Shown here in pieces: positions 6,863 through 55,643 of a stretch of 64,000 bases of DNA. The notes beneath the pieces are model-generated. The model saw only the letters and a list, made by a program, of their open reading frames with translations, was not told the DNA's origin and ran no database searches. The position numbers and the translations under genes were made by a program. The stretch comes from Parasporobacterium paucivorans DSM 15970 (GTDB lineage Bacteria > Bacillota > Clostridia > Lachnospirales > Lachnospiraceae): positions 1 through 64,000 of the forward strand of contig NZ_FQYT01000003.1 in assembly GCF_900141895.1 (NCBI RefSeq). The letters are read 5' to 3'. How positions within the stretch are numbered: the stretch's first letter is position 1; every line of letters begins with the position of its first letter.

Positions 6863-6901
6863 AATGGACTAATACCTGGTTATCTCAAGTATTAGTCCAT
6901 T
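6863..6901 (-). terminator. Intrinsic terminator of the BREX-like operon
   Basis: A perfect 13-bp inverted repeat (AATGGACTAATAC, arms 6863-6875 and 6889-6901) is followed on the minus strand by TTTTTTG. It lies 80 bp behind the cysteine desulfurase stop and separates the operon from the DUF5688 gene. Confidence 0.85.
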
Positions 6902-6981
6902 ATTATTTATATAATATATATTTAATTTTTTATTTTAATACAAGCTTAAATCTACTATTTTTGAATTTACAAATATCAGGT

Positions 6982-8121
6982 TTAAATAGCGGATTTAATT
7001 TTACCGTATGCGTCGCATATTGCTAAAGCTATGTATTCCACCTCTTCAAAAGTATTATACTTGCCGTAAGAGATACGAATTGTTGATTTCACTCGTTCCT
7101 CTGATAGTCCCAAAGCAAGCAAAACATGTGAAGGCTCGTCTTTTCCTGAGTTGCAGGCAGAACTAGTTGAAATGCAAATGCCCTTCAGGTCAAGAATGTT
7201 CATCAACGATTCTCCAGAAACTCCATTAAATCCAAGGTTCACAGTTCCGGGCAAGTGCGGATCCACATTTCCATTTATCCAAACGTCAGGGATTTTTTCT
7301 CTTATTCTTGCAACTGTAGTTTTAACCATTGCCCGAAGTCGTTCTGCGGTTACCAACATATCCTTTACGCTTTCCTCAATTGCATAACCCGCTGCAACGA
7401 TACCTGCCACATTTTCGGTTCCTGCACGGTGGCCATGTTCCTGCCCACCGCCGAACACCAGGTTGGGCAGGGTAATGCCTGAACGTTTATAGAAAATGCC
7501 GGCTCCCTTTGCTCCATTGAACTTATGGGCAGAAGCCGACAGAAAATCAACGTGGAGTTCATTTACATCAACCGGAATATGGCCAACAGCTTGGACAGCG
7601 TCCGTGTGAAACAGAATGCCTTTATCGTGAAGGTACTGCCCGATTTTCGCTACTGGCTGAACTGTTCCGATTTCGTTGTTGGCGAGCATTATTGAAATTA
7701 GTTTAGTATTTTGTGTAATCTTGGCCATCACATCACTAAGTGAAATAAATCCATTGCTATCAACTGGCAAATATGTGACCTCAATATTCTTACCTTCAAG
7801 AGCATGACAAGCATTCAAAATAGAGTGGTGCTCAATTGATGAAGTTATGATATGGATAACCTCACCGCTAAACATTTCCGCAATACCATGTAATGCCCAA
7901 CTGTTAGCTTCAGAACCACCGGAAGTGAATATGATTTCGGTCGGTTTTGCTCCGATAGCCTCAGCTACTTGTTTACGTGCATGTTCAATAGCATGCTTTG
8001 CTTTTACTCCAAACGAATATTGACTGGATGCATTGCCATATTGCTCCCGCATAAACGGAAGCATTTTTTCAAAAGCTATTTCGGATATTTTTGTTGTAGC
8101 AGCATTATCAGCGTAAATCAC
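6982..8121 (-). CDS. Cysteine desulfurase (NifS/IscS/DndA type), last gene of the BREX-like operon
   Basis: This pyridoxal-phosphate enzyme takes sulfur from cysteine and passes it on as an enzyme persulfide. The PLP lysine is K200 in SASAHKFNGAKG. The catalytic cysteine is C323 in STSSACNSGKDEPSHVL, and the cofactor-contacting His/Asp segments EHHS (97-100) and HTDAVQ (172-177) are present. At 379 residues it is full length. Translation starts at GTG 8121 with GAAGGG 8 nt upstream. Its place 17 bp behind brxL, before the operon terminator, indicates that it works with the system. By analogy with DndA it would supply sulfur and/or build iron-sulfur clusters for the BrxP-like protein. A housekeeping NifS is the alternative, but its co-transcription argues against that. 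Confidence 0.9.
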   Translation of the reverse strand: MIYADNAATTKISEIAFEKMLPFMREQYGNASSQYSFGVKAKHAIEHARKQVAEAIGAKPTEIIFTSGGSEANSWALHGIAEMFSGEVIHIITSSIEHHSILNACHALEGKNIEVTYLPVDSNGFISLSDVMAKITQNTKLISIMLANNEIGTVQPVAKIGQYLHDKGILFHTDAVQAVGHIPVDVNELHVDFLSASAHKFNGAKGAGIFYKRSGITLPNLVFGGGQEHGHRAGTENVAGIVAAGYAIEESVKDMLVTAERLRAMVKTTVARIREKIPDVWINGNVDPHLPGTVNLGFNGVSGESLMNILDLKGICISTSSACNSGKDEPSHVLLALGLSEERVKSTIRISYGKYNTFEEVEYIALAICDAYGKIKSAI

Positions 8122-8138
8122 GATATCATCCCTTCGTT

Positions 8139-9581
8139 TTAATTTTTATATTGAATATCAGGCACATCGCGTTTGCCAGGGATATCGAATTCCTTTGGAG
8201 CAAGCACGCAGAGTTGCTTTTTAATAATCGTCCGCATAGCCTTGGCAGGTTCAAGACAATACTTAATAAATTCATCCGGGTCAATATCAGATTTTGTCTC
8301 GGCCTGTGGAAAAAGTAGTTTTACGAAACCGGTGCACAGACGAGTAATTGCTGTTAGGTCACGTTTATCAGATTTGGGTGGTACAGCAAGGCAGGAGTCT
8401 ACCAATGCTGTATACCTCATGTCATCGCGTAATACATGAAGAACTTCGGCAAAATATTCCGTATTCAGAGCCCATCCGTCAGCTATTATCCCTGTATGAA
8501 AACGAGGAATCTTCCAACCAGGAATAAAACCGTGAAATCGGTCGAGTATTGCCGCTTCACGGAAAATTGGATTTATCTCATTAACCATATTGATATCTGC
8601 ATTGAACTTACTTGCATCAATATTACCTAGAACAATAATGCCTGCATCCGCAATTATCTGTGTGTCAAATCCTTTTACCTCACCAAACTCCATATAACTT
8701 TTCAGAGCCGCCTGTATTTGATCTGGTTGCTCAAATCGTAGAGATTGGATTTCGTCAAAAGCAACGTAGTCAAACCTCGTAATCAATCCGCCAGTTCTTT
8801 TATTGTTGTCATACAAAAGAGAGGCGCGTGAAATTGTACCGCTTGAAACAAGCCATCCCCTCTTACTTATTTTTTCATATACATAACTCTTTCCCGTTCC
8901 CATGGGGGCAAGTTCAATTAGATTAACGCGTCTTTCCACAAATGGTAATAGTCTTTGGAGAAAATACATTTTTTGTTCTTCAGTGTCGTAACCTTCTGGA
9001 TTATAATCAACGGCAGCTATTAGAACATCAAGCCACTCTGCCGTTGTAAATTTCTGACGTGCATCACGGTAATAATCCAAGTCTATACTATAAGGGCAAA
9101 ACGGTTGATATCCGATTAGCTTAATGAATCCACGCGGAGGTCTTTTCGAAAAATCTTGTTCCCAGACGAGGTCGATTATTCCCCAGTTTTCGCTTTCACG
9201 AAGCAGGGTATCTTGCCATCGACTTACAATGTCATTGGCGACTTCGCCGCCAGCACCTGTTTTCACCCCTCCGAAGTCAGGGAGTTCAAAAAGCGTCTTG
9301 CCTGTTTTAACGTCGACAGCAACACGAACTCGGGCAAGAAAACGAACGCTATCGCCATTAACCATTTGAAATTTGAATTGCTCATAATCCTCACGGCTTG
9401 GAATGTATTTCTTGATGTACCGGGTTACGCCATCATAGTCAATATTTCCACTCTCGTCAGAAAACTTCATCACGAGCCAATCGCGCATATATGATGGTAA
9501 ACTAAGGTCTGCAAAAAATTTTGTCCGTTCTGGATTTTTCAGGACAACCATTTCAGCGAAGACCTCTTTAATTTTATTCAT
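8139..9581 (-). CDS. brxL: BrxL-like AAA+ protein, short form without Lon protease domain
   Basis: The N-terminal region with YMRDWLVMKF (31-40) and the AAA+ core with Walker A PMGTGKSY (226-233) and Walker B YVAFDEIQS (272-280) fit BrxL, a DNA-binding AAA+ protein of BREX systems. Canonical type 1 BrxL is roughly 680 residues with a C-terminal Lon-like domain. This protein stops at 480 residues with no visible Ser-Lys protease dyad, so it may act only as an ATP-driven DNA-binding machine. The ATG at 9581 has GGAGG 7 nt upstream. It follows the small zinc-ribbon gene by 11 bp. Confidence 0.85.
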   Translation of the reverse strand: MNKIKEVFAEMVVLKNPERTKFFADLSLPSYMRDWLVMKFSDESGNIDYDGVTRYIKKYIPSREDYEQFKFQMVNGDSVRFLARVRVAVDVKTGKTLFELPDFGGVKTGAGGEVANDIVSRWQDTLLRESENWGIIDLVWEQDFSKRPPRGFIKLIGYQPFCPYSIDLDYYRDARQKFTTAEWLDVLIAAVDYNPEGYDTEEQKMYFLQRLLPFVERRVNLIELAPMGTGKSYVYEKISKRGWLVSSGTISRASLLYDNNKRTGGLITRFDYVAFDEIQSLRFEQPDQIQAALKSYMEFGEVKGFDTQIIADAGIIVLGNIDASKFNADINMVNEINPIFREAAILDRFHGFIPGWKIPRFHTGIIADGWALNTEYFAEVLHVLRDDMRYTALVDSCLAVPPKSDKRDLTAITRLCTGFVKLLFPQAETKSDIDPDEFIKYCLEPAKAMRTIIKKQLCVLAPKEFDIPGKRDVPDIQYKN

Positions 9582-9592
9582 CCATTAACCTC

Positions 9593-9793
9593 CTATAAGA
9601 ACAACGTGCAGCCTTGTTCTTTGAATTCTTGTATCTTAATGACTAGGTCTTCTTGATCGCAAACAATAAACTCAGCAAGACAGACTATGCAGTAGAACTC
9701 AGCAATATCTCTGCCGAGCATTTTTTTTGACAAAGCTACTTCGTCTTTGCTCAATTGCCCATTACAATCAATGCACAGCTTTTTTGTCTTCAT
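9593..9793 (-). CDS. Small zinc-ribbon protein (66 aa) inside the BREX-like operon
   Basis: Two CxxC pairs (C7/C10 in CIDC and C35/C38 in CIVC) make a likely single zinc-binding ribbon, followed by an acidic helix. The start ATG overlaps the pglZ stop by one base (TAATG), so translation is almost certainly coupled. I do not recognise the family by name. Conservation of such a tiny gene between pglZ and brxL would suggest an adaptor or regulatory subunit of the complex, but this is inference. Confidence 0.75.
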   Translation of the reverse strand: MKTKKLCIDCNGQLSKDEVALSKKMLGRDIAEFYCIVCLAEFIVCDQEDLVIKIQEFKEQGCTLFL

Positions 9794-11898
9794 TATGGTA
9801 ATCTCATTTCATTATTGCTAATGCCCTTTGGTTTGCTAGCAACAGTTTTTGTAGGTAGTGCAACTTTACGGGAAATAACTATCACTGGTACAAGGTACTC
9901 TTCAGGGGTCATGCCACCGTGAACCTCACCTGCTACAGCGTTTTCATCAGTGTTTCCGCCTGCTGCATTACCCGACTGCTTGAAATGTTCATATGTTTTC
10001 ATTACGATAAATGATTTTCCATCCAAATCTATACGCTTCATGGACGGAGTTATTGAAACATATGCAGCGTCTCTAAGTTCAACAAACCTCCCGTATGAAC
10101 GTACAATAGAATTCTTGGGAGGGTCAACCGCAAAGTTCTCTGAATCGTGGAAAAGTAGTGCGGCAAGTCTACTGCTGCCGTGGTCGCCGGTAACGATAAC
10201 TCTATTGACCTTTGATAACAGTTCTGCAATATACTCAACAATCTCATTAATTATTTCTATCTGGCGAGCAACACACAAAAAATAATCCTTGTCATCAGGC
10301 ATTCCATTATGGGAAAGCTTATCTAATCTATCCCATTTTTTATCATCTTGCCCCCATTTGTGGTTATATTCCGTTTCACTCGGAAGTAATGATCTCGCAA
10401 CTTCCGACTTTATATCTACTTCAACTACTAATTTCTTTAATTTGTAAATTATCAAGTGAAGCCACTCAGCGCCTAAGCCATCAATCCAAAAGATCATACT
10501 GTCATTTGCACCGCTCTGCTGCATAATTTTATTCCGGCCATCAATGATGTCGAAATCAATTTTATATGGAACATCCGTGCTAGGGCGATTTAGTATTTTG
10601 TTACGACGATACCAGGTGAAGTACTTTGATACTTCATCTGGGGAAATCGTAGCAGGGCTTAAATACTCGGATAAGTCTTGATAATCGTCTTTGATCAATT
10701 CTGATACTACCGCGACATCGGCTCCAGAACGCAGCAAACCACTTACTGTTTTTATGGCGTAAGAACGCTCAGCAAGTGTTTTATATGTTATTAACATCAG
10801 TCTTGTTTCTGGGGAGACAATTTTGTCAAGTTTAGCAAAATAATCGTCACTATATGTAACATCCAGCACTCTAAGAGCGGATTTGCGTTGCCTAATAAAT
10901 TCATCGGGAATTTTTGGCAATTCAAAAATTGAATCTCGTAGGGCATATGGAATCTCTGACGCAGTTTTTGTTTTCCCAACCGCATATGTAAAGTAATCGT
11001 CTGTCGGGTATAATTTATACCATAACCAAAGCAGATTTTGTTCCAAGTCGGTCAATTCAGTGAATCTCGCAAACACCCCCATCGGGTCAAAACCATGACC
11101 GATATTAAGAAGATACCTTATTGTTGCTGCAAAAGGTTCATCTTTCTTAATATTCTTGACAAGATTTCTCCAGAATTCACCATCTCCATAAGCTTTTTTC
11201 AGTTTTTCACCATCGGAAACAAGCGATGTAATATATGTAAATGGCTCGTCAACAATCTTAATCTGGACTCCACCGTAGGTCTTCTCTGCGTAACGAAACA
11301 GCTTTGTTCTGGCAGAAAATGCGCTCCGACTTTTATCTGCGTAGAAAGCCACCCATTTTTCAAGCCACCCTTGCAGGTTAATAGCATCTGTTGTTACTGC
11401 ATCTGCAAAATCCGGCGAGTATATGGTAAGGACATACTCAGATTCTACGTTACCTTCAGTTACTTCCCAAATAAATCTCTGTTGCCGTTCATCTTGAATT
11501 GGGATGATTTGGTCAAAAATCTCACGTCCACCAAAAATGGGAATGATGTATTTAGTCGTTGAGTTCTCGGCTTGTTGCTGTTCCCAAATTCCTGGAAATG
11601 ATGCGGTTGCTTTGTCAGTCTCACGCTTTGTGCATATACGCAAATACTCTCCCAAAGAGATTATTAGAAGTTGCTTTCCCGGATGTATAGCTAATTCGTT
11701 TTTTAAATCCTTAAAGCGTGGCAGGACATCCCCCGTGGTAAACTGAGCAAGGTCAATTTCGACATCACATACAGTTTTTAATTCGATGACGAGAGCAAGA
11801 TAATCATCAAAGTTGCGAACGAATATAAGCCGTGCCGGAAATCTTCCGGGCGTTAGTCTTTCATTAGAAACTTTTGAGATGATTTCGTTAATATTCAT
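9793..11898 (-). CDS. pglZ: PglZ-domain protein (alkaline-phosphatase-like), BREX core component
   Basis: The C-terminal half carries the PglZ core: metal-binding WIDGLGAEWL (471-480), VTGDHGSSRLAAL (569-581) and EVHGGMTPEEYLVPV (659-671), matching the alkaline-phosphatase superfamily metal ligands Asp, Asp-His and His. The N-terminal ~430 residues are helical and should be the partner-binding part. PglZ is the signature gene of BREX and Pgl phage-defence systems; its substrate is unknown. The 701-residue length is normal. The ATG at 11898 is preceded by AGGAGG. It sits between the brxC-like gene (12 bp away) and the zinc-ribbon gene, which overlaps its stop. Confidence 0.9.
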   Translation of the reverse strand: MNINEIISKVSNERLTPGRFPARLIFVRNFDDYLALVIELKTVCDVEIDLAQFTTGDVLPRFKDLKNELAIHPGKQLLIISLGEYLRICTKRETDKATASFPGIWEQQQAENSTTKYIIPIFGGREIFDQIIPIQDERQQRFIWEVTEGNVESEYVLTIYSPDFADAVTTDAINLQGWLEKWVAFYADKSRSAFSARTKLFRYAEKTYGGVQIKIVDEPFTYITSLVSDGEKLKKAYGDGEFWRNLVKNIKKDEPFAATIRYLLNIGHGFDPMGVFARFTELTDLEQNLLWLWYKLYPTDDYFTYAVGKTKTASEIPYALRDSIFELPKIPDEFIRQRKSALRVLDVTYSDDYFAKLDKIVSPETRLMLITYKTLAERSYAIKTVSGLLRSGADVAVVSELIKDDYQDLSEYLSPATISPDEVSKYFTWYRRNKILNRPSTDVPYKIDFDIIDGRNKIMQQSGANDSMIFWIDGLGAEWLHLIIYKLKKLVVEVDIKSEVARSLLPSETEYNHKWGQDDKKWDRLDKLSHNGMPDDKDYFLCVARQIEIINEIVEYIAELLSKVNRVIVTGDHGSSRLAALLFHDSENFAVDPPKNSIVRSYGRFVELRDAAYVSITPSMKRIDLDGKSFIVMKTYEHFKQSGNAAGGNTDENAVAGEVHGGMTPEEYLVPVIVISRKVALPTKTVASKPKGISNNEMRLP

Positions 11899-11910
11899 CG
11901 TAACGCCCTC

Positions 11911-14900
11911 CTAATTTAAGAAATTGTTGTATAACTCCGGATTCATATCAAGAAGTTTCAAAACAGCATTTCGTAGCTCTTCATCTGACATAGTCTTGAC
12001 GCGCGTTTTCGCCTGTTCTTGGTACGTCTTTTGCAAGTATGTATCAAGTGTAGCACGAATTTCAGGAATTTTCGTTTCCCAAGAATAGACATCCGATGAA
12101 AGCTTTGCATTCGTCTTTAGCCTATCTATAAGGACTTTTCTATCTGATATAAACGCAGCACGGTAATTTTCACCAATATAAGCAAAAAACCTATCCGATA
12201 TATAAGTTGTATCTTGCAAAACAGCAAGGTTGTTTCCTTTAAGGAAGGATAAAGCCTTGGTGAGGGCATCTTTATCTACAGCTCTGCCGTCCTGAAGAGC
12301 CCTAATGGTTCGCACAGATGCACTATGTGTTTCATCAAACAACCATATTATTGGTACATTATTGTTATTACACCATTCCTGTATAGAGGCTGTTCCGCTG
12401 ATATCTTGCCATTGCTTTTTCGCTGCCGCCGAATCCCGATTATGCTTTATGTTTTCAAGTAGCCCATTTAATTTAACATCGAAGATAGAAACTGGGGTTT
12501 CATAGGATTGTTGTTTTAGAGCGGTGTAGATTTCTTCTAATTCATCGTCAGTATACGTGATTTGTCGAGCATTAAAAATGGCTTCTAACAATAATTTGGG
12601 CTTCGATAAATGTTCCCATGCTGTTTTAGCACGGCCTTCCAATGTCGAAACAACACTCTCCTTATTCGTAAGTTCGGCCCATGACGATTTGGATATTTCA
12701 CGTAATTGTTTAAGTGCAGGAATCCAGCTTACGGGTAGGGTTTCGATTACCGTCCCCGGAACTTTCATATTCTCGAAAACATTATTTAAAGTGTTTTGAA
12801 CCGAACGGTATGTTTTTACACCCACGCCAATTTCAGAATTCACCGTGGCAATAACACCAAACTCTTGTGCAAGTTCTCCAAGCTTTTCAATCACTTGCGT
12901 TTCACGCCAGGCCGAAATAGAATCCTGTAAATATATGCGAAGTGCATCAAAGATATCCTTATCATTTAGGTTAAGCCGTTCACTCAGCGTTTCAAGCTCT
13001 CCAATATTAGAAAACATAAACCTTCTGAAGGCCGATAGCATGGCTGATTTGTCCCACAACGCATTTGTTATCACTTGGCGTAACTGACCACGTCCGTTGA
13101 ATTGTGTCAGAACTTCTGCCATGACACTCTCTTGATCTTCTGTGGTTTCATAAATAAAATCACATAATAGGTCTGTAAGCTTGATAACTACAGCCTTGGA
13201 CTCGTCGCCACCAAATTTGTCACTACCCATATACTTTAGCGCCCAAACAGGAACACCAATCACAATTGTTTTTTGTCTGATAAATTTTCTTGCCTCAGCT
13301 TCACTCACCGATTCCTGAGGGGATAACATAAAGATCTTCTGAATGTATTGCTTAAACTTTTGCCAGATAGCAGAACCTGACGAAAGATTATGATTGATTG
13401 TTTTTCCGTCTAACATCTTATTAACCATACTCGCTAAATTCCCAGCTGTTGGTGGCAGCGTATTGACACCGTCAAACCAGTTAAAAGTGCCATTGACAAG
13501 CGAACGAATCGCAAGCCCAATAAAGCACCCAACAGCCATTGAATTGTAGTATCCAAATGGAGGTTGCTGCAATTTAGCCCAAAGTACATCAATCGGAATC
13601 TTTGCACCTTGCGCTAATTCTTGTTGGAAAAACGTTGCTAGACTAGATATTGGCTCTACACTACTTCCGCTTAGGTTCTTTAGGGTATCTAAATCATTAA
13701 CATCCCACGCCTCAACAGTCTTTAGTGCATTTACAATATTGTTAACTTGATTATTGCTGCCTGCTTTGGTGATGCCAGTTAAAACAACATTGCTGTTACA
13801 TTTTTTATAAGCCGTATTTACGGTCACAAGGCGTTCGGGCGCAGCAGGGAATACATCAAATAGCACATCCTTTTCAATGCGCTTCATAAGATCGCTTTTC
13901 CCATATATACCTGTGTACTGGATTTCGCCATAATACGCAGAAATCTGAGAATCTGCCGATGGTCCCGCCCAAGTCGCAACAATCATGCTCGATTCTATAT
14001 CGTACTTCCCAGCATCACCAGTTTTTCCGTCATCAGCGCATAATTCTTTATGAGTAATAGCTTTATGCCAACGGTCAATTATCTCTGCCGTACATGGTTC
14101 ACGAAGCAAAGTAACGACGAGCCGATTGCTATCGTCTTCAGCGGCAATCTGTTTAATTTTTGTCTGAAACCTCGTGTATTCACTCGCTTCAGAAACAACT
14201 ACCACGAGAATTCCTATTTTATACGGAAACTTCTGTAATTCTTTTTTGATTTCGCCTAGTCGAGCCGAAAGAGATGTTGTCTCAGAGGAACAGGCTGCTA
14301 TATAAACTCGACCAAATGTTGCCCTTGTATTATCCCACATAGCACTCTCGAGTGCCTTTGAGAATACGCCCTTGTCAGAAAAAAGTGCATATCGGGTATA
14401 TTTCTTTTGGGTCATCTCAAGGCGAACATCGAAGGTGTCGGTGTTTCCTGTGTATGGCAACTCTAATCTTACGTCACCATTAGATTGTTCACCTAGGCTG
14501 AGAAGACCAATTTCCTTAAACGATGTGAGATACTCGTCAATCGTTGCCTGCTCTAACTGTCCGCGAAAACACTTGTAGAGCGTATTTCTGGTAGCTCCAC
14601 TTCGCCCAAACGTGTGGCTCTGTTTGCTATATAGATTGCTAATGTTGCTCCCGCTCATTACAGCTATGAGGAGCAATGCCGCCTTAAAGACGTGAATAGC
14701 ATACTCATCAGAGATGGAATCTGATTTGTTTTGGAAATGCTGAATAACTTTGCGGGTCTCCGCACTAAAGTCTCGTACATCGCTGCCGCGAGTGAAAAAG
14801 TAATCCCATAAATAATCAGCAGTTAGCCACTGCCATTTGTCGGGCTCATTATTCTCAATATAGTGGATAAACCCGACACCCTCTGAGGATTCATTTCGAT

Positions 14901-16128
14901 CTTTCATGAAACGGAATAAGGTCCTCTGCGATGCGCCAAAGTTTTGTGCCACCGTAGCAAGCATAGACAAAGTCATTGGGTGAATCGGACACAGCTTCGA
15001 CATGCGTTCGTTGATATTTATGCTTTGATCAAGGTTATCGAATTCTGCATTATACTTTTGGATGGATTTGAGTAAATCCTTTTTAATATCTTCCCATTGA
15101 TGCGCCATCCCTGGGCGAGGTATAATCGAATCACCAATTAAGTCATAGGCCGCACTCTCAGTGATATGGAATTCTAATTTATGATAACGGTGGAGAATTC
15201 GCTCATATGTTTCCTCACCGAGTTCCGATACCCACGTTGGGTCGTGGTGAACGATAAGGCACATAAAGAATGGGGCATTCTGTTTTGTCTTGCCGTCTTT
15301 ATCGACAGACTTGCAAAATTCTGAGAGGCGTTGAAGTACATTGTCATCTCCACAGTCGCGCAAAAACCCGGTGAATTCGTCCCAAATGAAAACTATGCCA
15401 GTTTCCTGCAGCCCATTTCCTGCAATGATATCTTTTATCCACTCCTCAAATCTATCCACAACACCTGTGAACATATTACGATGATTATCATCACATATAC
15501 GCTTAACCAAGTGGATAGCATCCGAGTCTCCATCCAATACAGCTTGTTGGAATTCTTCAATATCAGAATACTGGTCAGAAAGACCATAAAGCAGGTCTGT
15601 GAAAAGATACTCCCAGTTTATGCTCTTGTCGTTTATTGCATCTTTGGCCGCGTTAATGAGAGAGCTTGTCCCATAGTATGCTTTACCGCCAAACTTTTCA
15701 GCCAATTTTTCTTTAATTTTAACTTCCATCTCCATCATGAGATGTGTCCCGCTTTTGATGTCAGTTGCTCCGCTTGTCCAAACCACTAAAAAATCGCCTT
15801 TCTCGCGAATTTTTATAAAGCGTTTCCTGTACTCCGCGAGTGACGGCTTGTTGAGGAATGAATCGATGTTGGCAATGCTATCCTCAAATAGATGCTTTAA
15901 AACAATAGCTGCATAGCTTTTGCCCGTGCCATATGCACCATGAATCCAAAACGATCGACGTTTGTCGTTGTCTTCCCAAAGAATGGTTTGACAAACTGCT
16001 TCCATGGCTCGTTGCATATCTCCATGGACGATGTACTCTTGCCATAGATTAGGGTTTCGTTCTTCTGCATCCAAGTCTACGACTGATTCATAGTTGGCAG
16101 ATAGTTCAATATAATTGCTGTATTTCAT
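11911..16128 (-). CDS. brxC: BrxC/PglY-like giant P-loop ATPase
   Basis: This 1405-residue protein has a Walker A motif GAYGTGKS at 64-71 in the early, BrxC-like position. A Walker B GIVFIWDEF follows at 244-252, with the acidic pair D250/E251. The remaining ~1100 residues are long helical segments with no motif I can name. BrxC/PglY proteins are core ATPases of BREX systems and are thought to organise the modification and defence complex on DNA. The length is somewhat above the usual ~1200. The ATG at 16128 has GGAG about 9 nt upstream. It follows brxP by 14 bp and precedes pglZ by 12 bp. Confidence 0.85.
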   Translation of the reverse strand: MKYSNYIELSANYESVVDLDAEERNPNLWQEYIVHGDMQRAMEAVCQTILWEDNDKRRSFWIHGAYGTGKSYAAIVLKHLFEDSIANIDSFLNKPSLAEYRKRFIKIREKGDFLVVWTSGATDIKSGTHLMMEMEVKIKEKLAEKFGGKAYYGTSSLINAAKDAINDKSINWEYLFTDLLYGLSDQYSDIEEFQQAVLDGDSDAIHLVKRICDDNHRNMFTGVVDRFEEWIKDIIAGNGLQETGIVFIWDEFTGFLRDCGDDNVLQRLSEFCKSVDKDGKTKQNAPFFMCLIVHHDPTWVSELGEETYERILHRYHKLEFHITESAAYDLIGDSIIPRPGMAHQWEDIKKDLLKSIQKYNAEFDNLDQSININERMSKLCPIHPMTLSMLATVAQNFGASQRTLFRFMKDRNESSEGVGFIHYIENNEPDKWQWLTADYLWDYFFTRGSDVRDFSAETRKVIQHFQNKSDSISDEYAIHVFKAALLLIAVMSGSNISNLYSKQSHTFGRSGATRNTLYKCFRGQLEQATIDEYLTSFKEIGLLSLGEQSNGDVRLELPYTGNTDTFDVRLEMTQKKYTRYALFSDKGVFSKALESAMWDNTRATFGRVYIAACSSETTSLSARLGEIKKELQKFPYKIGILVVVVSEASEYTRFQTKIKQIAAEDDSNRLVVTLLREPCTAEIIDRWHKAITHKELCADDGKTGDAGKYDIESSMIVATWAGPSADSQISAYYGEIQYTGIYGKSDLMKRIEKDVLFDVFPAAPERLVTVNTAYKKCNSNVVLTGITKAGSNNQVNNIVNALKTVEAWDVNDLDTLKNLSGSSVEPISSLATFFQQELAQGAKIPIDVLWAKLQQPPFGYYNSMAVGCFIGLAIRSLVNGTFNWFDGVNTLPPTAGNLASMVNKMLDGKTINHNLSSGSAIWQKFKQYIQKIFMLSPQESVSEAEARKFIRQKTIVIGVPVWALKYMGSDKFGGDESKAVVIKLTDLLCDFIYETTEDQESVMAEVLTQFNGRGQLRQVITNALWDKSAMLSAFRRFMFSNIGELETLSERLNLNDKDIFDALRIYLQDSISAWRETQVIEKLGELAQEFGVIATVNSEIGVGVKTYRSVQNTLNNVFENMKVPGTVIETLPVSWIPALKQLREISKSSWAELTNKESVVSTLEGRAKTAWEHLSKPKLLLEAIFNARQITYTDDELEEIYTALKQQSYETPVSIFDVKLNGLLENIKHNRDSAAAKKQWQDISGTASIQEWCNNNNVPIIWLFDETHSASVRTIRALQDGRAVDKDALTKALSFLKGNNLAVLQDTTYISDRFFAYIGENYRAAFISDRKVLIDRLKTNAKLSSDVYSWETKIPEIRATLDTYLQKTYQEQAKTRVKTMSDEELRNAVLKLLDMNPELYNNFLN

Positions 16129-16142
16129 TAATATTATCTCCT

Positions 16143-18470
16143 TTACCCTACGATTAAATCGAGTACGTCGATTGCTTTTTTTTCTGGTACAAGCATTATA
16201 TTGTCAAGATCTTGAACAAATGCTACGCGGATAAATTCCGAATAATGCAGTGCGATGTCTTGCACAATTGCCTTGAAGTTGTTTGGGTTCAATCCAAAGA
16301 TTGATACTGGGTCAACACCTTTTGCTTCGGCATTACCGCGAGCATTGTCAAGTTGCGTCAGCGTGAATGTGTACCTCCCAGTTTCTTCGGCAAACTTATA
16401 TAGCGCGTAGAGGACAGAAATCGCTTCTGGCGTATCCCAACCTTGCTTAATAAACTTGAAGCTCGTGCCGTCTGGAATCGGGATGCCTTGTTTGAGCGCA
16501 GTGCCAATTGGTGAATGTCGAAATGTTTCGAGCAGAGCAGTCACTGCATTGTCGCGTGTTGACGGTGAATAGTCGTCACCAAGCATGAACACCAATTCTG
16601 CCTTGTCGTATGTTTCTCCTGGTTGCGCGTATAGCATATACCACTTTGCAATTACTGAGCTATACGCAAGATTTGTCCAAATTATCGACCATACAAGTGG
16701 ATTACCTGATCCAAGAGGAAGTAATCGTTCACATAGAGGGGTAAGAATCCCCGATTTGTCACCCTTGCTTGACGGTGAAAGTAGCCCGGCTTCCCTTACC
16801 CAGACACGGAGTGCATCGTACTGGCGGTTGCCAAGATGTTTCATTGAAAAGCAATCCGTGCCGTACTCAAAGAAATGCTCTAGCCACGGACGTCGAAATC
16901 CAAAATGTTGATAGCGATTCATACCTTTAAGATTCATGCCGAACCCTCCTGTTGTGTGTAGAGATTTTGCCGCCAAGCAGCCTTTTGTTCCCGTAAATTC
17001 GATGCAATTCGCACAATGTATGCATAGCTCCTCACGAATGAGGATTGTGTTATCTTCGCTTATCTCAAATGCTCCTGTCGGACACTGCACAACACATGCT
17101 TTACAACCAACACAATAAGCAACTTTATTTGCAACCCCTCGTAAATGGCTAATAATAAACCTATTCATTGAAGAGTAAGGGGAATAGGTTATTGTATCGT
17201 CGTCAATAGAAAATTTGTAGCTTTGATGGTCCATCAACTGAGTGTACGTATTCCCTTTTTTTTCGACAATTTCACCAAGTAGTTTGCTAACTTCCAACCA
17301 TTTGCTCATCTGGCGAGAAAATCGGAAAATAATTTTATCTCCATCTATTACTTCAGTGACGCGATTCCCTCCATCTTTTAACCCACGGCCACCCATGCGT
17401 CCTTTCCATCCACCTTCTTCTATGTATTTTCTTTGTTCTTTTGCTGTCTTTGTGTTATTAGCATAATCCTCTACCTTGTTTAACAAAGTGGCAAGTTCAT
17501 CTGGATAGGCATCATTGGCGATTCCATCCCACCAAGCTGAAGACATAGGACATATTTTGCAGCCCACACGGAATAAACCAATTCTATAAGCATCATTAAA
17601 AAGAATCTTGTTTTTTAATAAATACAGATAAATTTCGGCTGTACCCCATTCCAAGATGGGACTGCAGTTAACCTGACTTATATTTTTTACTCCTTCGCCG
17701 ATTGCTTCATACATCGATCGAGCAGCACTTTCTTCCTTCCGAACACCGTCAAAAACCACAGCCCTTGCATCATGATCTCCAGTTATCTCTCTAAGCTTGA
17801 TTATTGTAGGTACTGACTTATGTACCGAACAGCACCAGCGCAACCTACGCCCAGGAGGACCGAATGCATCCCAACTTTCATCTGGTGACATATGACTTGC
17901 TGCTTCATAAAAACGTAGTTTGCCCCAATGTTTCATCGAACGCTTAACAGACTCAAGGGTTGCATTTAATTCCATGCCCGTATTGCTGAAGATAACAACA
18001 AACTCGTCAGGACGTAGCGCTTTCGCCACAAGGTCAAGAAGAACGAGGCTGTCTTTACCTCCTGAAAAGGCGACAACGAACTTCAATCCCAACGCGGCAT
18101 ACTCATCATAAACGCGACGAATGAACCCAACTGCGGTTTCTTCAAGACCTCTCATCAGGCTCTCATTTGTTTTCCAGAGGGAGGCTATGTTAATTGCTTT
18201 TAACTTTAACCCATCTTTCTTAACATTTATAGTTGGCTTAGAATAGAAGCTGCCACCTATAGCTTCGGCGACAACTTCTCCGTTTAATATATATCGCCTG
18301 ATACCTTCTGCCCACAGTAGAGGGGCGTCAGTCTTTGGATATTCCCAATGAGCATCGAGCCCAAAGTTGTCAAGCTCCTCCTTAAATACAGGACGGATTT
18401 CTTTAATTACCTTAGCATCCGGAACGAGGAGGTATATTCCATTCTTTTTAGTCCACTTATAACCGTACAT
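16143..18470 (-). CDS. brxP: BrxP-like PP-loop protein with APS-reductase-type [4Fe-4S] site and ferredoxin domain
   Basis: Numbered from the ATG at 18470 (775 aa), the PP-loop SGGKDS is at 136-141. It is followed by the iron-sulfur signature CC (213-214) ... CKIC (304-307), which is the CC-X~80-CxxC pattern of APS reductases and DndC. The substrate-reducing C-terminal cysteine motif of true reductases is absent. A two-cluster ferredoxin follows: C453, C456, C459, C463 and C483, C486, C489, C498. The last ~230 residues are unassigned. The layout suggests ATP-dependent activation and sulfur transfer, probably to DNA, with built-in electron supply. The frame runs up to a TTG at 18521, but the ATG at 18470 lies 4 nt after the upstream stop with GGAG 10 nt before it, and is preferred. 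Confidence 0.85.
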   Translation of the reverse strand: MYGYKWTKKNGIYLLVPDAKVIKEIRPVFKEELDNFGLDAHWEYPKTDAPLLWAEGIRRYILNGEVVAEAIGGSFYSKPTINVKKDGLKLKAINIASLWKTNESLMRGLEETAVGFIRRVYDEYAALGLKFVVAFSGGKDSLVLLDLVAKALRPDEFVVIFSNTGMELNATLESVKRSMKHWGKLRFYEAASHMSPDESWDAFGPPGRRLRWCCSVHKSVPTIIKLREITGDHDARAVVFDGVRKEESAARSMYEAIGEGVKNISQVNCSPILEWGTAEIYLYLLKNKILFNDAYRIGLFRVGCKICPMSSAWWDGIANDAYPDELATLLNKVEDYANNTKTAKEQRKYIEEGGWKGRMGGRGLKDGGNRVTEVIDGDKIIFRFSRQMSKWLEVSKLLGEIVEKKGNTYTQLMDHQSYKFSIDDDTITYSPYSSMNRFIISHLRGVANKVAYCVGCKACVVQCPTGAFEISEDNTILIREELCIHCANCIEFTGTKGCLAAKSLHTTGGFGMNLKGMNRYQHFGFRRPWLEHFFEYGTDCFSMKHLGNRQYDALRVWVREAGLLSPSSKGDKSGILTPLCERLLPLGSGNPLVWSIIWTNLAYSSVIAKWYMLYAQPGETYDKAELVFMLGDDYSPSTRDNAVTALLETFRHSPIGTALKQGIPIPDGTSFKFIKQGWDTPEAISVLYALYKFAEETGRYTFTLTQLDNARGNAEAKGVDPVSIFGLNPNNFKAIVQDIALHYSEFIRVAFVQDLDNIMLVPEKKAIDVLDLIVG

Positions 18471-18474
18471 ATTT

Positions 18475-20496
18475 CTATCGCTCCAATATCTTAACCGTTC
18501 TGTTTTCATCTGTGAAAGCAAAGCGGTAGTCTTTTAATGCTTTATGCAAATTATAAATCAGTTCATTGCCCTCTAGCATACCTGCATTACGCAATATAAT
18601 CCGAAGGTCTTCAGTTAGCATCCTCTTGGATAGCAAATCTTTCTCAAAACAATAACGATGAATTACATCCGCAAACGATGTTATTTCTGATTTTGCATTC
18701 ACAATTGCTGCACCTAACGTGTCAAGTGCTTGCCCGTCAAGGCCCGAGAAGATTATTCGATAACCAATATTCCTATGCAAACGTAACATTTCTTGCAAGA
18801 GTATTGCCGTCCAAGGAATATCACCCTTAATTGTTGGCAAGGACGAAAACCATTCTTCAGTAATATCGCGTAAAATAATGTATGGAACCTTTTCTCCAGC
18901 AAAGAGTCGATCTAAAGCCTTTGTTACCGCAACACACCGTTCGCTTGTCAAATCAATGGTTTCCGTAAGGATAAATGTTCTACTTGCGTAAAACAAAAGC
19001 AATCCTTGGCGGATAATTGTTGCGTTAATAGGTGAACCTTGCTTGATTTGGGCAAAATAATCGTCGATTTGTTCCCGGGTAATTGTTCCTCCGTAATGAC
19101 GTGTGAGGTTTATAATAACCCCGACATAACTTTGTGGATAGTTCGGCACAGTTTTCCAGATATGTGGGTTGTTTAGCACATACTCGTCCGAAAAGGCCTG
19201 TCGCATAAATCTCCAAAGGTCATCGGCGTCATTAATGGCATTATCATTTAAGAACATCGAAAGTGCATCTTGAGCTGCGTTCCAAAGAATACCGATGTTG
19301 CTGTACCCGTAAAGTGTTTGAAAGTGGGCCTCAAGAATTTGTTGAATGCCTGATTTACCCTCATCCAAATCAATGATACAATCAAGTGGGGAAGGAGAAA
19401 TACTCTTAGCATCAGGTTGTTCATGTATATACTCACAAGCTTTACTTTCAACCTTCTGAAATTCAGAGGCATAAAACCGTTCAAACGCAGATAATGAAGC
19501 CGTGAACTGATTATGTCGTGAACTATTTGCACCACGAAAGCTACTGTCATTGTTAAGTAATACAATATACTTTCTAATCACTTCTAATGTGCCGTGAGAA
19601 TCATTGGCCGATTTTTGAGCTAACTCCGAATAGTTTCGGAATATCTGCTTCACGGCTCTACGGTAGTTTTGAGCAGTTTTTTTTGCATAATTCTCATACT
19701 CCAGCCATTCTTGAAATCTTTTTTCCACGCTTTCATTCCAAATGTTAACAATGCCCATTTTAAGGAAATCACTTTCAGAAGAGGTCTCAACAAAATGATA
19801 ATTGTGCTCTGAAGTGTCCTGGTATGGTTCCAGTTCCACCAAGCTATAAATTCTTTTATCGTCGTCATTTCGCTCAATGCAAAAACATGGAATAGGGTCT
19901 TTGTTTGAGTATCCGGAATTTTCACAAGCATATTCAATAGTTGTACGAACAACTTTAACGGGATTCTGTGCTCCGAAAGTATGTAGGTTTTGCTTAATTA
20001 TGCTGCTGTAAATTTCTTCAACTGTCATTGCGCGTTCTTCAGCTTCCAACACCTTTATTATAGCATCTTTTATGGTCATTCGCGCAGTTAGGTTCTCATC
20101 ATTTGCTGAGATAACCCCACTTATCTTTCGATGAAAGACGGGTTTTGATTTCAAGAACTTTAGGTATAACTGACCATCTCGAAAAAACGCGGAGCAAGTT
20201 TTCCTATCCAGAATCCTGAAAAACTTGTTATCCATTGCTTTTTTATAAATATCTTCAAAAGCAGAGTGCTTTGTTATTTCCCATAAAGGGGCGTAGGAAA
20301 TTTTCCTACGGAGCAATTGCTCGGAAGCATTGTCCAAAGAACGAATTATGTTGTCAAGGTCGCCCTGCTTAATTTTTCTGCTGGACAGCCAAGCAAAAAA
20401 TGCAGACTTAACCATTATGAAATCATAATAACCAGGTAGGTCATCACTTTTCACTTCATCATTAGAATCCAATTTCACTTCAAGTTCAGTTTCCAT
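18475..20496 (-). CDS. HARE-HTH-like / integrase-SAM-like protein, first gene of the BREX-like operon
   Basis: I do not know this 673-residue protein by name. Residues ~139-220 (TIKDAIIKVLEAEERAMTVE..., with a Val/Tyr-rich end RIYSLVE) resemble the HARE-HTH winged domain, which occurs in DNA-modification and restriction proteins and in chromatin factors. Residues ~256-345 (VEKRFQEWLEYENYAKKTAQ...) look like the SAM-like core-binding domain of tyrosine recombinases. No recombinase catalytic domain follows: the R/H/Y motifs are absent. The C-terminal 300 residues are helical and unassigned. The ATG at 20496 has AAGGAGG at good spacing. Its position next to the promoter suggests a DNA-recognition subunit, possibly giving sequence specificity. 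That role is inference. Confidence 0.75.
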   Translation of the reverse strand: METELEVKLDSNDEVKSDDLPGYYDFIMVKSAFFAWLSSRKIKQGDLDNIIRSLDNASEQLLRRKISYAPLWEITKHSAFEDIYKKAMDNKFFRILDRKTCSAFFRDGQLYLKFLKSKPVFHRKISGVISANDENLTARMTIKDAIIKVLEAEERAMTVEEIYSSIIKQNLHTFGAQNPVKVVRTTIEYACENSGYSNKDPIPCFCIERNDDDKRIYSLVELEPYQDTSEHNYHFVETSSESDFLKMGIVNIWNESVEKRFQEWLEYENYAKKTAQNYRRAVKQIFRNYSELAQKSANDSHGTLEVIRKYIVLLNNDSSFRGANSSRHNQFTASLSAFERFYASEFQKVESKACEYIHEQPDAKSISPSPLDCIIDLDEGKSGIQQILEAHFQTLYGYSNIGILWNAAQDALSMFLNDNAINDADDLWRFMRQAFSDEYVLNNPHIWKTVPNYPQSYVGVIINLTRHYGGTITREQIDDYFAQIKQGSPINATIIRQGLLLFYASRTFILTETIDLTSERCVAVTKALDRLFAGEKVPYIILRDITEEWFSSLPTIKGDIPWTAILLQEMLRLHRNIGYRIIFSGLDGQALDTLGAAIVNAKSEITSFADVIHRYCFEKDLLSKRMLTEDLRIILRNAGMLEGNELIYNLHKALKDYRFAFTDENRTVKILER

Positions 20497-20645
20497 TATT
20501 CTTGCCTCCTTCTGTGATAATACTTTGAAATATTATTCTCGTTTATGTCAGAAGTTACTCTCAATCTTAATCCTCTCACTTATCTCGGTTGCTTTGAACT
20601 TCCACTGCAGCCCAACCTTGAGACATCAACTCAAAATTTGTATTA

Positions 20646-20674
20646 ATTATATTCCAATTTATTCATATTAACAA
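20646..20674 (-). promoter_or_regulatory. Sigma-A-type promoter of the BREX-like operon
   Basis: On the minus strand TTGTTA (20669-20674), a 17-nt spacer and TATAAT (20646-20651) form a near-consensus promoter. The predicted start is near 20639, leaving a leader of about 140 nt before the ATG at 20496. I see no obvious operator or riboswitch in the leader. Confidence 0.75.
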
Positions 20675-21158: not shown

Positions 21159-21209
21159 TGCGCCTCCAGGGGATCGAACCCTGCACACCCTGATTAAGAG
21201 TCAGGTGCT
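21159..21209. repeat. attL core: 51-bp copy of the tRNA-Lys 3' end
   Basis: It is identical to 55593-55643 and lacks the 5' part of the tRNA, so it is not a functional tRNA gene. The bases on either side differ from the right copy, which fixes the 51-bp limits. Confidence 0.95.
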
Positions 21210-21250
21210 TCAACCTCTACGATACCGATAGAATATAGCTTGTAGGATTT

Positions 21251-21272
21251 TTTGACTAAACTTTGACTAAAC
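21251..21272 (+). repeat. Two tandem 11-bp integrase arm-type repeats, left end
   Basis: TTTGACTAAAC occurs twice head to tail (21251-21261, 21262-21272), 41 bp inside the left core. Five related copies lie inside the right end. Such repeats are expected binding sites for the integrase N-terminal domain. Confidence 0.75.
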
Positions 21273-23538: not shown

Positions 23539-24537
23539 CTATGCTATCCGTATCTGTAATTTGTCAATCTGTCTGCCGAAGATCCCGGCATAATCCGATA
23601 AATCAGCCACCCACGGAAGATAGTCGGTTGAGCCTATCAGCGACACCCGGTACTGTACGCTATATCCCGGCAAGTTATTCAATGCCATCTGTACACCGTC
23701 AATATTTCTGCCCCATACTCCGGCAAAGTCTGTCCGGTCATTTACAAATGGAAGCCAGCCGCCGCCTATTGTATGGACACGATACCGGATAGAGCCTTTC
23801 GATAACGATGCCATGATGCCTTGAATCGCTCTGTTTTCTATTCCGGCATAATCTGAATCGTTTACAACATTCGGAAGCCATGCGCCCCTTGAATTGCCCA
23901 CCTGATAGGTAACATCGATACCCGGCTTGACAACTGCCGGAGTAGGTGCTGGCGCAACTACCGGAGTAGCAACTACCGGCTCATTATTGACTGTTTCAGC
24001 CACTAATCCGAAATAGGCTATCAGAGTATCAGCCACACCTTTTGCGTATGCTCTTTGCCCTGCTTCCGTGACGATATAATCCATGTCGGCTGAATCCATG
24101 AAGCCACCCTCAAATAAGATTGTTGGGAAATTGCAGATTGTTGTCATGTAAAGCAATCCATATTTAACGCCACGATTACGGAGGCCGGTACTTGCAGACA
24201 CCTTTTCCGTCATTAATTTAGCAATGGCGATGGAGTCCGCTCTGGCTCCGTTTCTAACCCATGACTCAATGCCTAATCCTCCACCGGCGTTATGATGTAT
24301 TGACACGGAAGCAATCGGATTGAGTGCTTTAATCTTTGCCATCCTGGTAGCCAGGGGAACGTCTGTATTCCCGGTAATATCATCCACCCGGACAACCGTT
24401 ACACCGCAGGCGGTCAGGATTTCCGTAATGTAATTGCATACCTTATTATTGAGTTCCCATTCGTGGATGCCGGATAAAGTTATCTTGCCGGCGGTCTTTA
24501 AACCGTGGCCCGCATCTAAACAAATTATTTTGCTCAT
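23539..24537 (-). CDS. Endolysin: N-acetylmuramoyl-L-alanine amidase (Amidase_3) with three C-terminal repeats
   Basis: The catalytic domain (1-178) has the Amidase_3 zinc ligands and acid in order: H11 (DAGHG), E27, H81 (SIHHN) and E143 (LFEGGFMD). It cleaves the bond between MurNAc and L-alanine of peptidoglycan. A Pro/Ala/Val linker (185-205) leads to three ~40-residue repeats (about 209-245, 250-288, 294-330). Each has a (Y/W)LP-V-D and (D/A)AG-x-x-x-R-x-I pattern, similar to Clostridial hydrophobic W repeats, and probably binds the wall. There is no signal peptide, so release depends on the holins next door. Confidence 0.9.
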   Translation of the reverse strand: MSKIICLDAGHGLKTAGKITLSGIHEWELNNKVCNYITEILTACGVTVVRVDDITGNTDVPLATRMAKIKALNPIASVSIHHNAGGGLGIESWVRNGARADSIAIAKLMTEKVSASTGLRNRGVKYGLLYMTTICNFPTILFEGGFMDSADMDYIVTEAGQRAYAKGVADTLIAYFGLVAETVNNEPVVATPVVAPAPTPAVVKPGIDVTYQVGNSRGAWLPNVVNDSDYAGIENRAIQGIMASLSKGSIRYRVHTIGGGWLPFVNDRTDFAGVWGRNIDGVQMALNNLPGYSVQYRVSLIGSTDYLPWVADLSDYAGIFGRQIDKLQIRIA

Positions 24538-55400: not shown

Positions 55401-55430
55401 GCCCCTACCGTAATGGTAAGGGCTTAATTT
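55401..55430 (+). terminator. Integrase terminator
   Basis: GCCCCTACC/GGTAAGGGC (arms 55401-55409 and 55415-55423, one mismatch) is followed by TTAATTTTTT on the plus strand, 15 bp after the integrase stop. Confidence 0.85.
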
Positions 55431-55503
55431 TTTGACTAAACTTTGACTAAACTTTGACTAAATTACACCCCCAAAATGGGCCTTGACTAAACTTTGACTA
55501 CAC
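55431..55503 (+). repeat. Five 11-bp integrase arm-type repeats, right end
   Basis: Copies of TTTGACTAAAC (with small variations) begin at 55431, 55442, 55453, 55482 and 55493, all in one direction and mostly 11 bp apart. The same repeat occurs twice inside the left end. Confidence 0.8.
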
Positions 55504-55592: not shown

Positions 55593-55643
55593 TGCGCCTC
55601 CAGGGGATCGAACCCTGCACACCCTGATTAAGAGTCAGGTGCT
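55593..55643. repeat. attR core: 51-bp repeat inside tRNA-Lys
   Basis: Identical to 21159-21209. It runs from the discriminator base of the tRNA to nucleotide 23, so recombination leaves the tRNA sequence unchanged. Confidence 0.95.

What the first reader, a model, noticed from the sequence alone, without database searches (positions are those of the whole stretch)
6863..20674. Type 4 BREX-like operon that appears to be built for sulfur modification
One promoter-to-terminator operon joins BREX core genes (BrxC-like ATPase, PglZ, BrxL) with a PP-loop protein and a cysteine desulfurase. The PP-loop protein carries the CC-X~80-CxxC iron-sulfur signature of APS reductases and DndC. No DNA methyltransferase is present, unlike type 1 BREX. 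Established knowledge: type 4 BREX has a PAPS-reductase-like gene (brxP), and Dnd systems use a desulfurase plus DndC to make DNA phosphorothioates. Inference: this system marks host DNA with sulfur instead of methyl and uses the BREX machinery to recognise unmarked phage DNA. DndD and DndE are absent, so specificity and nicking must come from other subunits.
Basis: partly seen in the sequence, partly recalled or inferred. Interest (0 to 1): 0.88.

Follow-up and report, generated by a model that had tools for sequence, protein, structure and literature searches.

The report
Sulfur-marking BREX operon with leader gene
This is a bacterial anti-phage gene cluster of an already described kind (type 4 BREX, which marks DNA with sulfur); the less ordinary part is its first gene, a patchwork DNA-binding-type protein that recurs at the head of many such clusters and that I did not find described.

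Summary
Seven tightly packed minus-strand genes (20496-6982) end in a strong terminator and match type 4 BREX: BrxP (E=7e-231), BREX-4 PglZ and BrxL above curated cut-offs, BrxC, a DndA/SspA/NifS-type cysteine desulfurase and a small four-cysteine-motif protein. No methyltransferase domain was found. BrxP carries the PP-loop, CC-X89-CxxC and eight further invariant cysteines.

The sulfur interpretation is sound but published: brxPCZL is listed among phosphorothioate-making families (PMC11931770), and the desulfurase (56% of taxa) plus the small zinc protein are reported for type 4 BREX (PMC12839542). Modification in this strain is untested.

It belongs to a mosaic family of putative DNA-binding proteins just upstream of brxP: 16 of 28 systems with readable upstream DNA (13 of 25 when only systems found through BrxP count), and 8 of 8 with a desulfurase. 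The family's C-terminal module also heads four PbeA/PbeC (CxC ABC-ATPase) operons, another phosphorothioate-related system. Its role (recognition/sensor subunit or operon regulator) is inferred. The operon lies outside the neighbouring tRNA-Lys prophage.

The parts
18475..20496 (-). ORF1 'leader', 673 aa: domain A (~24-123), HARE-HTH-like (~140-220), integrase SAM-like/core-binding (~259-336, no catalytic domain found), C-terminal module remotely like LeadC (~380-673)
16143..18470 (-). brxP: PP-loop/PAPS-reductase, CC-X89-CxxC, ferredoxin-type eight-cysteine cluster, C-terminal SspB/DUF4007-like region
11911..16128 (-). brxC ATPase (Walker A G64-S71, D250-E251)
9793..11898 (-). pglZ, BREX-4 type (D473, D526/H530, D572-H573-G574, H660 invariant)
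9593..9793 (-). 66-aa CxxC...CxxC protein (Zn66) with a fifth invariant cysteine near the C-terminus (C62)
8139..9581 (-). brxL, 480 aa: BrxL_N + ATPase domain matched by Pfam; the protein ends soon after the ATPase domain
6982..8121 (-). cysteine desulfurase (DndA/SspA/NifS-type; SAHK and SSAC motifs present)
6863..6901 (-). intrinsic terminator of the operon
20646..20674 (-). promoter-like match (TTGTTA-17-TATAAT), unproven

Best explanation
A type 4 BREX anti-phage operon. The desulfurase takes sulfur from cysteine and hands it on (perhaps through the five-cysteine 66-aa protein) to BrxP. BrxP uses ATP at its PP-loop and its Fe-S centres to put sulfur into the DNA backbone; its SspB-like C-terminus and the BrxC ATPase place the complex on DNA. 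PglZ (metal-dependent, nuclease/phosphatase-like) and BrxL (DNA-binding AAA+ ring) then block phage DNA. ORF1 is a modular DNA-binding-type protein that belongs to the system and most likely reads DNA for it (a target or sensor subunit), or else switches the operon. Shown here: gene content, order, intact catalytic motifs, recurrence. Inferred from print: phosphorothioation and phage blocking. Inferred by me: the roles of ORF1 and of the 66-aa protein.
For: Family models: BrxP, BrxC, BrxL, PglZ and DndA/SspA; PglZ over the BREX-4 cut-off and BrxL over its cut-off. Conserved catalytic and Fe-S residues. Phosphorothioate synthesis by brxPCZL stated in PMC11931770. Leader family just upstream of brxP in 16 of 28 evaluable systems, 13 of 25 without the three that were found through the leader or given. 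All 7 strong LeadC hits (E<1e-100) in 398 genomes lie upstream of brxP, 6 within 48 nt and 1 with a single 238-aa gene between; 6 of the 7 helped build the model, 1 (G414) did not. A further genome found with ORF1 alone (G147) proved to have a 727-aa gene with domain A and LeadC (E 5e-96) a few nt in front of a full-length brxP.
Against: No wet data for this strain. 12 systems readable past brxL lack an operonic desulfurase and 10 of 28 lack a leader-family or sigma-type gene, so neither is essential to the kind. ORF1 has no confident structure (mean pLDDT 37), its Pfam matches are below the curated cut-offs, and the LeadC model misses ORF1 at E <= 1e-5. Parts of ORF1 also occur elsewhere: in G113 its HARE region matches a 283-aa protein that is not a leader.
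Confidence: 0.83

Rival explanations
1. ORF1 is a transcriptional regulator of the operon, the slot that BrxR fills in type 1 BREX (recalled; PMC9122589 on BrxR seen in a search listing only), and has no part in DNA marking or phage recognition.
For: First gene of the operon; some relatives carry sigma-70 region 4; in two genomes (G361, G434) a sigma-factor-type gene sits ~30 nt upstream of brxP instead.
Against: Sizes of roughly 460-1320 aa with several stacked DNA-binding-type modules are large for a simple regulator; the close spacing to brxP and the sharing with PbeA/PbeC operons fit a working subunit as well.
Confidence: 0.4
2. The desulfurase and BrxP serve an unrelated pathway such as tRNA thiolation or sulfate assimilation and are only neighbours of BREX genes.
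For: Desulfurases are general sulfur donors; the tree does not cleanly separate BREX desulfurases from the genome's own NifS-like copies.
Against: brxP is followed by brxC, pglZ and brxL across distant genomes; BrxP has ferredoxin-type and SspB-like extensions; the desulfurase follows brxL, directly or after the 66-aa gene, in all 8 systems that have it.
Confidence: 0.04
3. The operon is cargo of the adjacent prophage, as the IMG/VR record implies.
For: IMG/VR UViG_2585427596_000001 is 55383 bp and, from the matched stretch, spans about window 3-55385 including the operon.
Against: The prophage has its own 51-bp repeats in tRNA-Lys at 21159-21209 and 55593-55643 with an integrase at 54264-55385; the operon lies outside by ~0.5 kb; G+C is ~0.46 in the prophage next to it and 0.38-0.43 in the operon.
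Confidence: 0.05

Closest known systems
Type 4 BREX (brxPCZL), with desulfurase and small zinc-finger protein as in Rakesh & Krishnan 2026 (PMC12839542)
   Same: BrxP-BrxC-PglZ-BrxL, cysteine desulfurase, small CxxC protein; no methyltransferase domain
   Different: Adds a mosaic leader gene in front of brxP that the text I read (sections 34 and 38, section 35 part 1 of 2, and term passages; no supplements or figures) does not describe
SspABCD (SspD, SspB, SspC, SspA)
   Same: PAPS-reductase-like, SspB-like region, ATPase and desulfurase; cross-matches to DndC/SspC/SspD/SspA models and to Ssp-like loci
   Different: Here the SspB-like part is fused to BrxP; the BREX desulfurase is 24-27% identical to the copies in three Ssp-like loci and branches apart from them; four such loci have no PglZ or BrxL hit in the fetched 16-20 kb
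Dnd (DndABCDE)
   Same: Desulfurase plus PP-loop Fe-S protein
   Different: No convincing DndD in the genome (two weak hits; the same search rings in 12 of 14 control genomes); no DndD or DndE match among the operon's proteins
CxC ABC-ATPase / PbeABCD systems
   Same: Four loci (G544, G470, G280, G322:C6) carry a protein with the LeadC module at the head of a PbeA-PbeC-small-protein operon
   Different: PbeA HKD-helicase and CxC ATPase instead of BREX genes; weaker LeadC scores (E 9e-30 to 7e-6)

Membership tests
Type 4 BREX | BrxP-like PAPS reductase | tested here: met
   PDLC02510 E=7e-231 over aa 18-790 of the long frame
Type 4 BREX | BREX-4 type PglZ | tested here: met
   NF033445 282.9 bits, cut-off 140
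Type 4 BREX | BrxC-type ATPase with Walker motifs | tested here: met
   PDLC02475 E=9e-69; Walker A and B residues invariant or nearly so in 10 proteins
Type 4 BREX | BrxL | tested here: met
   TIGR02688 399.5 bits, cut-off 329.3
Type 4 BREX | No methyltransferase in the operon | tested here: met
   no MTase domain in the seven proteins
Type 4 BREX | SspB/DUF4007-like part | tested here: inconclusive
   window BrxP does not hit PF13182 alone; 4 of 16 aligned BrxP proteins do; ~290-aa proteins of Ssp-like loci match the BrxP profile
Type 4 BREX | Makes DNA phosphorothioate | not testable with these tools
   needs LC-MS or iodine cleavage
Dnd | DndD/DndE pair | tested here: not met
   no DndD or DndE match among the operon's proteins; own genome shows only two weak DndD-profile hits, best E 1.7e-5, and the search rings in 12 of 14 control genomes; DndE was not searched genome-wide
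Type 1/2/3 BREX | BrxX/PglX methyltransferase | tested here: not met
   none among the operon's proteins; not searched genome-wide
Leader family (proposed here) for ORF1 | Gene just upstream of brxP, same strand | tested here: met
   ORF1 stop and brxP ATG 4 nt apart
Leader family (proposed here) for ORF1 | Shared domain A | tested here: met
   BLAST E 3e-14 with G309 and 4e-19 with G458; 8e-43 with G428 over domain A plus the HARE region
Leader family (proposed here) for ORF1 | LeadC C-terminal module | tested here: inconclusive
   hhalign score 37.2, Prob 41%, against a best of 26.1 in 200 column shuffles, 0 of 200 as high; but no HMM hit at E <= 1e-5
BrxR (type 1 BREX regulator) | WYL domain (recalled) | tested here: not met
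   no WYL hit in ORF1 at E <= 0.1

The most novel reading that the evidence does not exclude
ORF1 belongs to a family of exchangeable DNA-reading subunits that serve two otherwise distinct phosphorothioate-type defence machines, type 4 BREX and the CxC ABC-ATPase/Pbe systems. A common C-terminal module docks on the machine while swapped N-terminal modules (domain A, HARE-HTH, integrase-type SAM, sigma-70 region 4 and others) choose the DNA to be marked or attacked. The 66-aa protein, with four zinc-type cysteines and a fifth invariant cysteine near its C-terminus, would be the sulfur relay between desulfurase and BrxP.
Probability: 0.3. Interest if true: 0.68.

Novelty: new member of a known kind. 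Interest (0 to 1): 0.4.

Why it matters
The operon itself adds one more type 4 BREX with its own desulfurase. If the leader family is a true component, it offers a direct handle on an open question: how phosphorothioate systems choose their sites or sense phage DNA. Swapping leaders between type 4 BREX operons would test it in one experiment.

Tried and rejected
AlphaFold2 on ORF1 with two sequences gave mean pLDDT 37; no fold search was made on it. PDB sequence searches with LeadC, the 66-aa protein and ORF1 found nothing convincing. PADLOC (E<=0.001) and PHROGs (E<=0.01) have no match for ORF1; among its relatives PADLOC gave only a weak Cas12f hit in L006 (E 0.003) and matches to MzaA, mostly to its last ~60 positions, in sigma-region-bearing proteins, which I took as no more than the shared sigma-type part. 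IMG/VR scans gave one full-length BrxP, the window's own record; the other hits listed (capped at 80) are partial or single PAPS-reductase stretches. No ORF1 match in the phage or plasmid collections; the few BrxP relatives there covering 80% or more of the query are ~30-34% identical. Desulfurase tree: BREX copies are not one supported clade (39% of bootstrap trees), so a dedicated desulfurase lineage is not shown. Comparison of the ORF1 C-terminus with the G428/G199 type failed (E 0.48), while that type matched LeadC weakly (Prob 49%, E 1.7e-4, no shuffle control). The idea that the operon belongs to the prophage was rejected. The promoter match is unproven. A draw of genomes around G160 gave only 10 genomes and no new system.

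Rows dropped before counts. Systems were taken from BrxP matches that span most of the model or score E<1e-150, plus the broken G434: 16 of 37 matching genomes and 9 of 13 (the window's genome is in both); the other 21 and 4 genomes have shorter or weaker matches, many with an SspB/SspC-like order, and were left out. The 28-system count leaves out G785 (292 bp upstream; its cut-off first gene matches LeadC) and G885 (2 bp upstream) from the 30 tabulated. Three of the 28 were not found through BrxP (window given; L006 by ORF1; G414 by LeadC) and all three have leaders, hence 13 of 25 without them. G322_C43 is counted although a 238-aa gene lies between (so one search does not list its 987-aa leader); G199 is counted by its 47% identity to the G428 leader, not by an HMM hit. 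G147 came last, was found through ORF1, and is in none of these counts. The leader/desulfurase comparison uses 8 systems with a desulfurase (G785's leader is a 95-aa fragment) and 12 that I judged by eye readable past brxL (G457 has only 1.7 kb there); L006, G322_C43, G322_C30, G386, G199, G434, G652, G765, G885 and G414 were left out as cut or decayed. Not Pfam-scanned: leaders of G878, G685, G683, G765, G199, G147 and the G434 sigma-type gene.
Full report
WHAT IS THERE. The minus strand from 20496 to 6982 holds seven genes with gaps of 17 nt or less: ORF1, brxP, brxC, pglZ, a 66-aa gene, brxL and a cysteine desulfurase. PADLOC models give BrxP (E=7e-231), BrxC (9e-69), PglZ (4e-35), BrxL (2e-180) and DndA/SspA (6e-137 and 5e-136); NCBIfam puts PglZ over the BREX-4 cut-off and BrxL over its own. 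No methyltransferase domain was found in them. A 16-pair hairpin with a T-run closes the operon (z=-5.8, 0 of 200 shuffles as stable); promoter-like matches are not clearly in excess in the region, so the promoter is unproven.

MOTIFS. Across 16 BrxP proteins the PP-loop SGGKDS, C213, C304, C307 and eight ferredoxin-type cysteines are invariant, and C214 nearly so. PglZ keeps D473, D526, H530, D572-H573 and H660 (13 of 13); BrxC and BrxL keep Walker A and B residues (10 and 11 proteins); the desulfurase has SAHK and SSAC. So no part looks broken.

IS IT KNOWN. Yes, in the main. PMC11931770 (passages) says phosphorothioate synthesis is known for dndABCDE, sspBCD and brxPCZL, and that type 4 BREX acts against viruses without restriction endonuclease activity, citing Yuan et al. 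2024 (not held). PMC12839542 (section 34 read) reports the desulfurase in 255 of 457 taxa and the small zinc-finger protein.

GENOME CONTEXT. BrxP is the only PAPS_reduct match in the 97.5% complete genome. The desulfurase is not the only one: 14 Aminotran_5 matches, four of them put in a tree with it. In that 15-protein tree a single BREX clade is not supported (39% of bootstrap trees), and three of the genome's own copies fall in the same unresolved group. To the right lies a 34-kb prophage in tRNA-Lys (51-bp repeats 21159-21209 and 55593-55643; integrase 54264-55385). The operon is outside it; further left are genes with DUF5688, RadC, DUF1643 and DUF960 domains, which I take, from recall, as mobile-element-type. 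An IMG/VR 'viral' record took in both operon and prophage.

THE LEADER GENE. ORF1 has only weak HARE-HTH and integrase SAM-like Pfam matches, below cut-off. A homologue 61% identical along its length sits in the same place in a Firmicutes MAG (L006), where HARE-HTH passes its cut-off. I took type 4 BrxP loci from draws of 398 (phylum) and 391 (class) genomes plus two phage contigs and one plasmid and read their upstream genes. Of 30 systems tabulated, 28 have at least 1.3 kb upstream: 16 have a leader-family gene in front of brxP (15 within 48 nt; in G322_C43 a 238-aa gene lies between), 2 have a sigma-70-type gene there, 10 have neither. Without the window, L006 and G414, which were not found through BrxP, it is 13 of 25. 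Eight systems with a desulfurase beside brxL (window, G458, G485, MT835511, G878, G785, G685, G683) all have a leader (a cut-off fragment in G785) and the 66-aa gene; of 12 systems read past brxL without a desulfurase, 4 have a leader and 5 the 66-aa gene. These rows are related by descent, so I attach no p-value.

LEADER ARCHITECTURE. Modules seen: domain A (window, L006, G428, G309, G458, and weaker in MT835511, G765, G878, G683 and G685), HARE-HTH (L006, G428 over cut-off), integrase SAM-like (MT835511, G192 over cut-off), sigma-70 region 4 (G160, G322, G414 over cut-off), and a ~460-aa C-terminal module, LeadC. No nuclease or recombinase catalytic domain was hit in the leaders scanned. ORF1's own C-terminus matches LeadC only remotely: hhalign score 37.2, Prob 41%, against a best of 26.1 in 200 column shuffles (0 of 200 as high), reversed 16.1; the LeadC HMM does not find ORF1 at E<=1e-5. 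I read this as distant homology, not proof.

LINKAGE TEST. Searching 398 genomes with LeadC gave 12 places. The 7 strongest (E<1e-100) are all upstream of brxP, 6 within 48 nt and G322_C43 with one gene between; six helped build the model, the seventh (G414) did not and runs into a contig-end brxP 2 nt later. Of the 5 weaker places, 4 (G544, G470, G280, G322:C6) head an operon of PbeA, PbeC and a small protein: G544 and G470 by PADLOC models, G280 and G322:C6 by BLAST to G544 (PbeA 41% and 34%, PbeC 31% and 30%). This is the CxC ABC-ATPase system that PMC10853773 (passages) ties to Dnd. The fifth (G152) has no such neighbour. Searching 150 family genomes with ORF1 gave, besides the window's own, two partial matches. 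G147 turned out to have a 727-aa gene with domain A and LeadC (E 5e-96) a few nt before a full-length brxP and brxC, with no pglZ or brxL in the next 2 kb fetched. G113 shares only the HARE region, in a 283-aa protein of restriction-endonuclease look (by eye, recalled Mrr type), and is not a leader.

PRINT ON THE LEADER. I found no description of it in the passages of PMC12839542 and PMC10853773 that I read, nor by searches. PMC12839542 does mention HARE-HTH, but fused to nucleases, and sigma-type HTH in BrxL. Supplements were not searchable and Yuan et al. was not held, so it may be known there.

MECHANISM. Most likely: desulfurase to (perhaps) the 66-aa protein to BrxP to DNA, with the SspB-like BrxP tail and BrxC placing the complex, and PglZ and BrxL blocking phage DNA; the leader reads DNA for the complex or controls the operon. 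The 66-aa protein has five invariant cysteines in 16 of 16 sequences, one near the C-terminus, which would suit a sulfur relay; against that, PMC12839542 likens it to transcriptional regulators, it occurs in systems without a desulfurase, and one relative (G925) has no BREX gene around it. Marking, blocking and both new roles are inferences.

VERDICT. A real, intact-looking member of a known kind, with a recurrent leader component that I did not find described. Interest is moderate.

Noticed in passing
window 21159-55643: Prophage in tRNA-Lys: 51-bp att-type repeats, integrase 54264-55385, amidase 23539-24537; TTGACTAAAC-type repeats near both ends (21247-21272 and 55427-55503) could be integrase arm sites.
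   Followed up: partly
IMGVR_UViG_2585427596_000001 (L005): IMG/VR viral record, 55383 bp, spans about window 3-55385 and so includes the BREX operon that lies outside the prophage repeats.
   Followed up: yes
L057:630-2108 (G361) and L069:15977-17419 (G434): Sigma-70-type genes (75% identical to each other; in G361 Pfam regions 1.1, 2, 3 and 4 pass the cut-off) about 30 nt upstream of brxP, in place of a leader; the G434 brxP is in fragments.
   Followed up: partly
L196, L197, L198, L200 (G544, G470, G280, G322:C6): Leader-type proteins of 958-1320 aa head PbeA-PbeC-small-protein operons.
   Followed up: partly
L049:6162-6875 (G322): 238-aa protein with an HNH-like CxxC...H pattern (read by eye; no PADLOC hit) between leader and brxP.
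   Followed up: no
L055:3420-6608 (G458): PLD-helicase of the type IV methyl-directed restriction class (PADLOC mREase_IV E=1.5e-210) next upstream of the leader.
   Followed up: no
L066/L067 (G386): Decayed type 4 BREX: brxP profile match with four in-frame stops and no BrxC, PglZ, BrxL or 66-aa hit in the fetched ~39 kb.
   Followed up: no
L201:9547-9870 (G925): A relative of the 66-aa CxxC protein with no BREX gene hit in the surrounding 20 kb, so the family also exists outside BREX.
   Followed up: partly
L076 (MT835511.1): An unverified 'Bacteriophage sp.' contig carries the full seven-gene set; 6 of 9 flanking proteins scanned match PHROG families (unknown, kinase, sigma factor), none structural, so phage origin is uncertain.
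   Followed up: partly
L209:8810-9658 (G113): 283-aa protein with a HARE-type N-terminus like ORF1's and a restriction-endonuclease look (by eye), with a PAPS-reductase-type gene ~7 kb away.
   Followed up: partly
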